In this document: piece by piece, positions 24,972 to 31,290 of the stretch
Layout: every line of letters begins with the position of its first letter
Position numbering within the stretch: the first letter of the stretch is position 1
Assembly (NCBI RefSeq): GCF_001280425.1
Contig: NZ_LIUF01000001.1
Location: forward strand, 476,945 to 540,944
Source: Haloarcula rubripromontorii
GTDB lineage: Archaea > Halobacteriota > Halobacteria > Halobacteriales > Haloarculaceae
Direction: 5' to 3'
Length of the DNA: 64,000 nucleotides
Translations under genes and position numbers: made by a program
The notes under the pieces: model-generated
What the model was told of the DNA's origin: nothing
The model's database searches: none
Seen by the model: only the letters and a program-made list of their open reading frames with translations

Positions 24972-25111
24972 CTGTATCGCAGACGAGACAGCGGCATCAC
25001 TACAGTGTGATGGATGTGAACGTGTTAGGCGGCGGTTTAAATTGTATCCAGAGCATACGTGCAGATACACTTCTGCTACCAACCCTATACCAGTTTTTTG
25101 CCGTTCCAAAA

Positions 25112-25127
25112 GTGGAATGCATTCCAC
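25112..25127. promoter_or_regulatory. Palindromic operator candidate upstream of rbkR-ribB
   Basis: GTGGAATGCATTCCAC is a perfect 16-bp palindrome 41 nt upstream of ATG 25168 and just upstream of a TATGCTTATCC box (about 25134-25144). The box-to-start distance of about 27 nt implies a leaderless mRNA. Since the gene itself encodes an HTH-riboflavin kinase, this is the natural autoregulatory site. Inferred, not proven. Confidence 0.55.
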
Positions 25128-25167
25128 CTTCGGTATGCTTATCCGGCGGGAATCCCTACTGCAGCGC

Positions 25168-25866
25168 ATGGCTGAATCAACGGGACAGGGCGTCGGTCGG
25201 GACGAGCTGGCGACGCTGAAACTGCTCGCCCTCGACGGTGCGCTCGATGAGTCGACGAAAGTGTCCTGTGCCGATCTCGCCGAACGGCTGGACGCCTCGA
25301 ACCAGACCGCCTCGCGGCGGCTCCAGCGGCTCGAAGACGCCGGGCTGCTGGCCCGAAACATCGTCAGCGACGGCCAGGAGGTCGAGCTGACCGGGGACGG
25401 CGAACGACGCCTCCAGTCAGAGTACGCTGACTACCGGCGCATTTTCGAAGCCGACGCCAGCGTCGACCTGACCGGCGTCGTCACCTCGGGGATGGGAGAG
25501 GGTCGCCACTACATCACGCTGCCGGGCTACATGGAGCAGTTCATCGAGCGGCTGGGGTACGAGCCGTTCGCGGGCACGCTCAACCTCGAACTCACGGCCG
25601 AGAGCGTCCGCAAGCGGGCGCGGATGAGCGCTATCGAGCCGGTCACCATCGAGGGCTGGGAGGACGACGAGCGGACGTACGGCCCGGCGTACTGCTACCC
25701 CGCCTCGATAGAGGGCGGCGACGGCGAGTACGAGCCAGCCCACGTTATCGCGCCCGAGCGGACCCACCACGGCGAGGAACAACTCGAAGTGATTGCGCCC
25801 GAAAAGCTCCGCGAGGTGCTGGAACTGGCCGACGGGGACGAGGTGATCGTGCATGTCTCGGAGTGA
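25168..25866 (+). CDS. rbkR: RbkR: HTH regulator fused to CTP-dependent riboflavin kinase
   Basis: A 232-residue two-domain protein. Residues 12-90 are a winged HTH ([30 protein letters not shown]) and residues 100-232 a CTP-dependent riboflavin kinase of the archaeal DUF120 family ([39 protein letters not shown]). It makes FMN from riboflavin; RbkR proteins are known archaeal regulators of riboflavin genes. ATG 25168 is favoured by promoter spacing. The 3' end overlaps ribB by 14 nt. Confidence 0.92.
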
Positions 25867-26527
25867 GGAAACCGCCGTCGAGGCCGACAGCGTGGCCGAC
25901 GCCGTCGCCGCCTTCGCCCGCGGCGAGCCGGTGCTGATCCACGACGCCGCCGACCGCGAGGGCGAGACGGACCTCGTCTACCCGGCCGGGGCCGTCACCC
26001 CCGAGGCCGTCGCCCGGATGCGTAACGACGCCGGCGGCCTCGTCTGTGTTGCACTCTCCGACCGGGTCGCCGACGCGCTGGAACTGCCCTTCATGCAGGA
26101 CGTGCTGGACCACCCCACCGCGGCCGACCACGACCTCGCCTACGACGAGCGCTCCTCCTTTTCGCTGACGGTGAACCACCGCGACACCTTCACTGGCATC
26201 ACCGACGACGACCGCTCGCTGACGATTCAGGAACTGGCCGCCGCTGCGACGGACCCCGACCCCGAGGCATTCAGCGAGGCATTCCGGTCGCCGGGCCACG
26301 TCCACCTCCTCCGTGCGGCCCCGGACGGCCTTTCTGACCGCGAAGGCCACACCGAACTCGCGCTCGCGCTCGCGGCCGCGGCCGACCAGCCCGAGGCCGC
26401 CGTCGTCTGTGAGATGCTGGACGACGAGACCGGCGCGGCGCTGCCCCCGGCGGCCGCGCGGGCCTACGCCGACCGGGAGGGGCTGGTCTACGTCGAAGGT
26501 GCCAGCCTGTTAGAGCGGTTCGAATAA
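25853..26527 (+). CDS. ribB: 3,4-dihydroxy-2-butanone 4-phosphate synthase
   Basis: A 224-residue enzyme converting ribulose 5-phosphate into the four-carbon precursor of riboflavin. Active-site acidic loop [13 protein letters not shown] (about residues 30-42), [32 protein letters not shown] and [10 protein letters not shown] are all in place. It starts inside rbkR (ATG 25853), so synthesis is coupled to the regulator-kinase. Slightly diverged from bacterial RibB, as usual in archaea. Confidence 0.93.
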
Positions 26528-30405: not shown

Positions 30406-31290
30406 TTACTGCTCGCGGTGTCGCTCCCACGTCCGGACGAGGGCAGCGAGCGTCTCGTTCACAGGCACCGGCTTGGTCGCGGTGTCGGCGACGTAGCCGT
30501 TGATAGCGTCGATTTCCGTTCGCCGGCCGGCCGAGACATCCTGGAGCATCGACGAGTGGTTGGCGGCGGTGTCGTCGACGACACGCTCGACGAGCGACAC
30601 CGCACGCTCGTCGGAAAGGTTGACGTCCTGCTCGCGGGCGACGGCGGCTGTCTCCCGGGCGGCGTCCGCGGCGATAGCGTCGGCCGGCGAGTCGGCCAGC
30701 GCGCCGTTCTCCACGCGGGCAAGAGCCGTCACGGCGTTGATGCCGGCGTTGACCGCGAGTTTCTCCCAGAGGCGGGTCGGCATGTCCGTGGCGACGGTCG
30801 TCTCGATGCCGGCCGCGCGGAACGCCGCCCCGACCTCGTCAGCGACTGTGGACCGGCCGCCGTCGCGGTCCCCCAGCACAACCTCGCCGCGGCCGGTGAA
30901 CGCCACGGTGCCCGGTTCTCGAAGTCGTGCCCCGTAGGAACACGTCCCCGCCAGCACCGGACAGTCCAGTTCGGCGGCCAGCTGCGACTCGTTGCCCATT
31001 CCGTTCTGGAGCGAGAGGCAAGCGTCGAAGGTACAGTCCGCGAGGTCCGCTGCAAGGGCGGCGGTGTCGTAGGCCTTGACCGTCACCAGCGCGAGGTCAG
31101 CGCCCTGTGAGACTGTCGTCTGTGCGTTCGGGTAGACCCGAAACTCCTCGGTTCCGACGACCGAGAGCCCACTCTCGGTGACGGTGCCGACGTGTGGCTC
31201 CCGCCCGACGAGCGTCACGTCGTGTTCGCGGGCGAGCAGGCCACCGACGAGGCTGCCGAGGCTCCCGGCACCGACGACGACAATATCCAT
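30406..31290 (-). CDS. Ketopantoate reductase family protein (ApbA/PanE)
   Basis: A 294-residue NAD(P)H-dependent reductase with the GAGSLGSLVGGLLA dinucleotide-binding loop at the N-terminus, the family lysine/asparagine in WEKLAVNAGINAVTAL, and NHSSMLQDVSAGRRTEIDAINGYV. Known members reduce 2-dehydropantoate for coenzyme A synthesis, though paralogues vary. The open frame continues upstream to 31716, but it overlaps the opposite gene; ATG 31290 is the start. Confidence 0.88.
   Translation of the reverse strand: MDIVVVGAGSLGSLVGGLLAREHDVTLVGREPHVGTVTESGLSVVGTEEFRVYPNAQTTVSQGADLALVTVKAYDTAALAADLADCTFDACLSLQNGMGNESQLAAELDCPVLAGTCSYGARLREPGTVAFTGRGEVVLGDRDGGRSTVADEVGAAFRAAGIETTVATDMPTRLWEKLAVNAGINAVTALARVENGALADSPADAIAADAARETAAVAREQDVNLSDERAVSLVERVVDDTAANHSSMLQDVSAGRRTEIDAINGYVADTATKPVPVNETLAALVRTWERHREQ

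What the first reader, a model, noticed from the sequence alone, without database searches (positions are those of the whole stretch)
25112..25167. Palindrome directly before the TATA box of rbkR-ribB
Seen: GTGGAATGCATTCCAC, a perfect 16-bp palindrome, then a TATGCTTATCC box, then ATG about 27 nt later. The first gene is itself an HTH-riboflavin kinase. Known: RbkR proteins regulate archaeal riboflavin genes. Inferred: this is its operator, letting flavin status set ribB and rbkR together.
Basis: partly seen in the sequence, partly recalled or inferred. Interest (0 to 1): 0.5.

Follow-up and report, generated by a model that had tools for sequence, protein, structure and literature searches.

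The report
Haloarchaeal operator for vitamin B2 genes
The short palindrome is one part of a deeply conserved DNA switch in front of a vitamin B2 (riboflavin) operon whose first gene encodes its likely own regulator, and in most salt-loving archaea examined this switch sits on the opposite side of the promoter's TATA box from where more distant archaea of the phylum keep it.

Summary
The palindrome is real (25112-25127), but a perfect 16-mer is expected 1.7-1.9 times per window by chance. Conservation makes the case. It is the inner part of a longer element: half-sites TnnCA/TGnnA in alternating orientation every 9 bp (TTCCA-N4-TGGAA-TGCA-TTCCA, 25104-25126), directly before BRE/TATA. A 39-nt pattern of element plus TATA gave 67 stretches in the genome collection; 66 lie 61-67 nt before rbkR in halophilic archaea (one titled only Euryarchaeota) and one is a Bacteroidetes MAG. 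ribH, arfA and arfC promoters lack it. The dyad TnnCA-N4-TGnnA also precedes rbkR in 80 of 100 genomes outside the order (0 of 99 control stretches). Outside the order a TATA-like run lies upstream of the dyad in 65 of 79; here and in most Halobacteria it lies downstream; side needs one change on the RbkR tree. Position predicts activation here, repression there. Binding, ligand and sign are untested. RbkR operators are a published kind; that paper was not held.

The parts
   Evidence: columns 2, 5 and 6 of the site alignment: T and A in at least 90% of rows of A2, C in all; 80, 81 and 78 of 81 distinct sites
25113..25117 (-). middle half-site TGGAA (TGnnA); with the left one it makes the dyad TnnCA-N4-TGnnA, 25104-25117
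   Evidence: T 79, G 81, A 80 of 81 distinct sites; the same dyad in 80 of 100 rbkR upstreams outside the order
25122..25126 (+). right half-site TTCCA (TnnCA)
   Evidence: T 80, C 80, A 78 of 81 distinct sites
25112..25127 (.). the reported perfect palindrome = middle half-site, joint TGCA (25118-25121), right half-site and one flanking base each side
   Evidence: perfect in 9 of 24 same-genus sites, 0 of 11 other sites of the order, 5 of 66 collection sites
25131..25135 (.). CGGTA: BRE position, and also one further 9-bp step (possible fourth, degenerate half-site CGnTA for TGnnA); cannot tell which
   Evidence: C, G and A invariant in 28 aligned sites; CGnTA within 10 nt before TATA in only 4 of 74 other promoters
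25138..25142 (+). TATA box CTTAT
   Evidence: CTT invariant in 28 aligned sites; TTAT starts 29 nt before ATG, the general haloarchaeal peak
25168..25866 (+). rbkR: winged helix plus CTP-dependent riboflavin kinase
   Evidence: PF01982 147.8 bits (cut-off 25), HTH_20 33.4 bits (cut-off 27); best solved match 3cta/5trd, E 4.8e-34
25853..26527 (+). [quoted passage not shown]
   Evidence: TIGR00506 214 bits (cut-off 177)

Best explanation
The element at 25104-25126 is the operator of RbkR, the product of the first gene of the operon that it precedes. RbkR, presumably as a dimer, reads pairs of half-sites TnnCA/TGnnA set 9 bp apart; the left-middle pair TTCCA-N4-TGGAA is the unit shared with the rest of the phylum, and the reported palindrome is the joint to the next half-site. 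Shown by comparison: the element, its tie to rbkR-ribB, its phasing and its place against TATA. Inferred: that RbkR binds it; and that, because it lies just upstream of BRE/TATA at fixed spacing, bound RbkR helps the basal factors onto the promoter, so that the operon is activated when FMN is scarce and released when FMN rises. My odds: RbkR operator about 0.93; activator sign, given that, about 0.65.
For: Conserved block -65..-24 in 15 distinct same-genus rows (1.12-1.42 bits per column against 0.17-0.42 further upstream); 35 of 38 relatives' upstreams carry the site; 66 of 67 collection hits lie before rbkR, 56 of them at exactly 64 nt; best profile hit in this genome is this place only; dyad in 80 of 100 rbkR upstreams outside the order against 0 of 99 control stretches, 2 of 100 for the reversed motif, mean 4.1 of 100 in shuffles; further TGnnA exactly 9 bp upstream in 27 of 79, 0-2 at the other 12 offsets; ribB follows rbkR in the first 20 of 20 outside genomes that I compared by eye; [quoted passage not shown] also PMC6737238, passage).
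Against: No binding data. ribH, arfA and arfC promoters lack the element, so it would control a single operon here. If CGGTA is a bound half-site, RbkR would cover the BRE and repress. A test for a weak BRE was inconclusive. The covariation that favours the left pair (z 3.3) does not allow for kinship, and unrelated column pairs score higher (ranks 11 and 19 of 276). 20 of 100 outside upstreams have no exact dyad. By position RbkR would repress in the outside genomes, which fits poorly with binding hindered by FMN (recalled).
Confidence: 0.65

Rival explanations
1. RbkR operator, but for repression: dimers on TTCCA-N4-TGGAA and on TTCCA-N4-CGGTA cover the BRE and keep TFB off, so RbkR represses its own operon.
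For: CGnTA stands exactly one 9-bp step after the right half-site and is invariant in C, G and A in 28 aligned sites, while only 4 of 74 other promoters have CGnTA within 10 nt before TATA; outside the order tandem dyads 18 bp apart are seen, and there the dyad lies downstream of TATA, a repressor position.
Against: CGGTA coincides with the BRE position and also stands before ribH, in 24 of 30 upstreams (-60..-20), without the rest of the element; its first letter departs from TGnnA. Right half-site and CGnTA show no covariation.
Confidence: 0.3
2. Operator of a regulator other than RbkR that happens to control rbkR-ribB.
For: No binding test exists here; conservation before a gene does not name the binder.
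Against: The element or its dyad goes with rbkR through the phylum, the gene encodes a helix-turn-helix protein, and no second place in this genome gives a convincing profile hit (only the best 150 of 822 and 682 candidates were scored).
Confidence: 0.05
3. Chance palindrome without function.
For: Perfect 16-mers are expected 1.7-1.9 times in the window and 2 are there; the perfect form is kept in few relatives.
Against: The half-site pattern around it is conserved across families of the order and in the phylum.
Confidence: 0.01

Closest known systems
RbkR operators and riboflavin regulons of archaea (Rodionova et al. 2017, Nucleic Acids Res 45:3785; not held, content recalled; cited in passages of PMC8305020 and PMC10746257)
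   Same: Same regulator-kinase, same pathway, operator before rbkR and riboflavin genes; Haloferax rbkR (HVO_0326) already bears the name in PMC8305020.
   Different: I could not compare the haloarchaeal motif or site position with the published ones. Phased half-sites and the change of side against TATA are what I add, and they may be in that paper.
TK0271, activator of aromatic amino acid operons in Thermococcus (PMC6737238, passages)
   Same: Palindromic site upstream of BRE/TATA of biosynthesis operons.
   Different: Half-site TGGACA-N8-TGTCCA, several operons, other regulator; a works-like comparison only.
TFB-RF1, activator in Pyrococcus (PMC5937170, passages and abstract)
   Same: Activator that recruits TFB from a site near its own operon's promoter.
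   Different: Other protein; relies on a weak BRE, which my test did not show here.

Membership tests
RbkR protein | winged helix-turn-helix fused to a CTP-dependent riboflavin kinase domain | tested here: met
   PF01982 147.8 bits (cut-off 25), HTH_20 33.4 bits (cut-off 27); aligned through HTH and kinase with 3cta/5trd, E 4.8e-34 (that this chain is Thermoplasma RbkR is recalled)
RbkR protein | NCBIfam equivalog NF010762 (HTH/riboflavin kinase) above its curated cut-off | tested here: not met
   224.5 bits, full-length match (14-231), but cut-off 279; I read this as a narrow cut-off, not as a different protein
RbkR protein | riboflavin kinase activity and flavin/CTP-dependent DNA binding | not testable with these tools
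   needs purified protein
RbkR operator | conserved inverted-repeat site before rbkR orthologues | tested here: met
   35 of 38 relatives, 66 of 67 collection hits, dyad in 80 of 100 outside the order
RbkR operator | same site before other riboflavin genes (regulon) | tested here: not met
   ribH and arfA: no R2 hit in 60 loci, TnnCA-N4-YGnnA in 1 of 30 and 1 of 30; arfC: TnnCA-N4-TGnnA in 0 of 30. arfB, ribL and transporters not examined. ribB itself is in the operon.
RbkR operator | match to the published lineage motif | not testable with these tools
   source paper not held
RbkR operator | binding by RbkR, helped by CTP and hindered by FMN (recalled) | not testable with these tools
   needs gel shift
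archaeal activator site | upstream of BRE/TATA | tested here: met
   site 25104-25126, TATA 25138-25142; same order of parts in 28 aligned sites (profile included TATA) and 66 collection sites (pattern required it)
archaeal activator site | expression falls without the site | not testable with these tools
   needs reporter

The most novel reading that the evidence does not exclude
The RbkR operator moved once from downstream to upstream of the TATA box, after two deep-branching lineages of the order had split off, while regulator and rbkR-ribB operon stayed the same; the same flavin-sensing enzyme-regulator thereby changed from repressor to activator of its own operon, or reversed its ligand response.
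Probability: 0.5. Interest if true: 0.65.

Novelty: new member of a known kind. Interest (0 to 1): 0.45.

Why it matters
It turns an isolated palindrome into a defined operator with half-sites, phasing and one target operon, testable in Haloferax or Haloarcula. The change of side against TATA would give a natural pair of lineages for asking whether one archaeal regulator activates or represses by position alone.

Tried and rejected
Regulon in this genome: profiles R1 and R2 found no convincing second place (only the best 150 of 822 and 682 candidates were scored), and the 3-mismatch matches of the palindrome elsewhere were not pursued. Promoters of ribH, arfA and arfC: no operator. R2 on the first 20 upstreams outside the order gave 1 hit; the single dyad, seen by eye and counted by regular expression, was the better common form. 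Weak-BRE test for an activator-dependent promoter: inconclusive, the rbkR median (39 distinct sequences) lies at the 46th percentile of 74 other promoters. CGnTA as a general haloarchaeal BRE: no peak at the BRE position in 285 stretches, 4 of 74. Paper searches: two papers hold RbkR with riboflavin and archaea; neither gives a haloarchaeal motif in the passages I saw.

Full report
What is there. The palindrome is at 25112-25127 as stated, between a TYW1-like gene (ends 24971) and the operon rbkR (25168-25866) - ribB (25853-26527). RbkR has a helix-turn-helix and the CTP-dependent riboflavin kinase domain; its best solved matches are 3cta/5trd (E 4.8e-34; Thermoplasma RbkR by recall) and the kinase MJ0056. 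It stays below the cut-off of the NCBIfam equivalog NF010762 (224.5 against 279 bits). As a bare palindrome it is not remarkable: two perfect 16-mers occur in the window, 1.7 (composition) or 1.9 (Markov) are expected.

Conservation near home. RbkR was found in 38 of 41 genomes (own plus 40 relatives). Of their 38 upstream regions 35 carry a clear site. In 15 distinct same-genus rows mean information is 1.12 bits per column at -65..-40 and 1.42 at -40..-24, against 0.70 at -24..0 and 0.17-0.42 further up. Without gaps, 28 distinct sites of 42 nt share three half-sites TnnCA, TGnnA, TnnCA in alternating orientation, one every 9 bp, then TtCGgTATgCTTAT. These sites were picked with a profile that includes the TATA part. 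The perfect 16-mer is kept in 9 of 24 same-genus sites, 0 of 11 from other families of the order, and 5 of 66 collection sites.

Collection scan. The pattern TNNCANNNNTGNNANNNNTNNCANNTYCGNTAYNCTTWT, scanned over the genome collection, gave 67 stretches; I expect about one by chance (my arithmetic). One is a Bacteroidetes MAG with no rbkR in its stretch. The other 66 (haloarchaeal titles, one only 'Euryarchaeota archaeon') lie 61-67 nt before the rbkR start, 56 at exactly 64, the start being extrapolated from the tblastn alignment. In this genome the full profile hits once (E 1e-10). In 41 genomes 35 have a hit at E 2.9e-4 or better, all at rbkR; most of these sites or their copies built the model. 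The best hit away from rbkR has E 0.02. The six genomes without such a hit are G011, G038 and G039 (no rbkR found), G025 (kinase part only), G032 and G034 (below). ribH, arfA and arfC upstreams lack the element; other riboflavin genes were not examined.

Beyond the order. In the phylum sample 139 of 146 genomes have a match to RbkR. I read 100 upstreams of the 111 outside the order. TnnCA-N4-TGnnA lies near the gene in 80 of 100, against 0 of 99 in stretches further upstream, 2 of 100 for the reversed motif and a mean of 4.1 of 100 in shuffles. Typical forms are TCTCAATTTTGAGA and TATCAATATTGATA. In 27 of 79 a further TGnnA stands exactly 9 bp upstream, with 0-2 at every other offset from -16 to -4; a common form is TGAGA-TGCA-TCTCA, the same joint as in the window. 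In the first 20 of these genomes ribB follows rbkR directly (match ends 1-94 nt apart, by eye). In 81 distinct sites of Halobacteria the variable letters of left and middle half-sites covary (0.44 complementary against 0.32, z 3.3, 1 of 2000 shuffles), those of middle and right do not (z -0.1). This control ignores kinship and other column pairs score higher, so I give it little weight.

Change of side. Outside the order a TATA-like word lies upstream of the dyad in 65 of 79 (58 upstream only, 7 both sides; 5 downstream only, 9 neither). In the haloarchaeal collection set it lies downstream in 66 of 66 (57 downstream only, 9 both), but there the pattern required it. In two genomes of the order, G032 and G034, the half-sites run over the start codon (TTTCA-AATC-TGTTA-TGCA-TGCCA-GAAC-TGGAA in G034), so downstream of where TATA should be; I placed their TATA by eye and it is weak. 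On an RbkR tree of 46 rows, rooted on the 13 outside rows, G032 and G034 branch first within the order, the 31 upstream rows form one group (support 99/97), and side needs one change. Three of the 13 outside rows (G041, G046, G060) had no exact dyad and were labelled with their group.

Mechanism. [quoted passage not shown] PMC6737238 (passage) says the same of activators. By that rule RbkR activates rbkR-ribB in most Halobacteria and represses it outside the order. By recall of the abstract of Rodionova et al. 2017, CTP helps and FMN hinders RbkR binding. Activation fits that in Halobacteria (low FMN, more RibB and kinase); repression elsewhere does not fit easily, which is one reason to test the sign. 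The main rival is that CGGTA, one more 9-bp step on, is a bound half-site over the BRE, which would make RbkR a repressor here too. A test of BRE strength did not decide.

Known or new. RbkR operators and riboflavin regulons are a published kind, and Haloferax rbkR already bears the name (PMC8305020, passages). I could not read the source paper, so the haloarchaeal motif, and even the change of side, may be in it. I file the element as a new member of that kind. In the listings of searches and in the passages I read, I saw nothing on the phasing or the change of side.

Noticed in passing
L074-L103, -60 to -20 before the ribH match: CGnTA stands before the TATA-like word of ribH in 24 of 30 upstreams (14 of 30 for arfA), as in rbkR, while only 4 of 74 other promoters have it within 10 nt before TATA (the stretches compared differ in length). 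It may be a shared BRE variant of riboflavin genes.
   Followed up: partly
window 30569-30584: The other perfect 16-bp palindrome of the window, GTGTCGTCGACGACAC; about the number expected by chance.
   Followed up: no
G172:C1:398913-400191: A second, diverged rbkR match (38% identity, one TGA inside) directly followed by a second ribB match (61%) in a genome that also has the usual pair.
   Followed up: no
G077, G092, G102, G127, G137 (one genus), G132, G180 (same family): Five genomes of one genus have no match to RbkR and a RibB only 38% alike; two more of the family have the kinase part alone. RbkR control may be lost or replaced there.
   Followed up: no
G014, G015, G020: Three or four matches to GTP cyclohydrolase III (arfA family) in one genome, some of them fragments with a stop inside, against one in most relatives.
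   Followed up: no
L040 (G034) and L039 (G032), rbkR start: Four phased half-sites overlap the rbkR start codon, so the operator would also be translated.
   Followed up: partly
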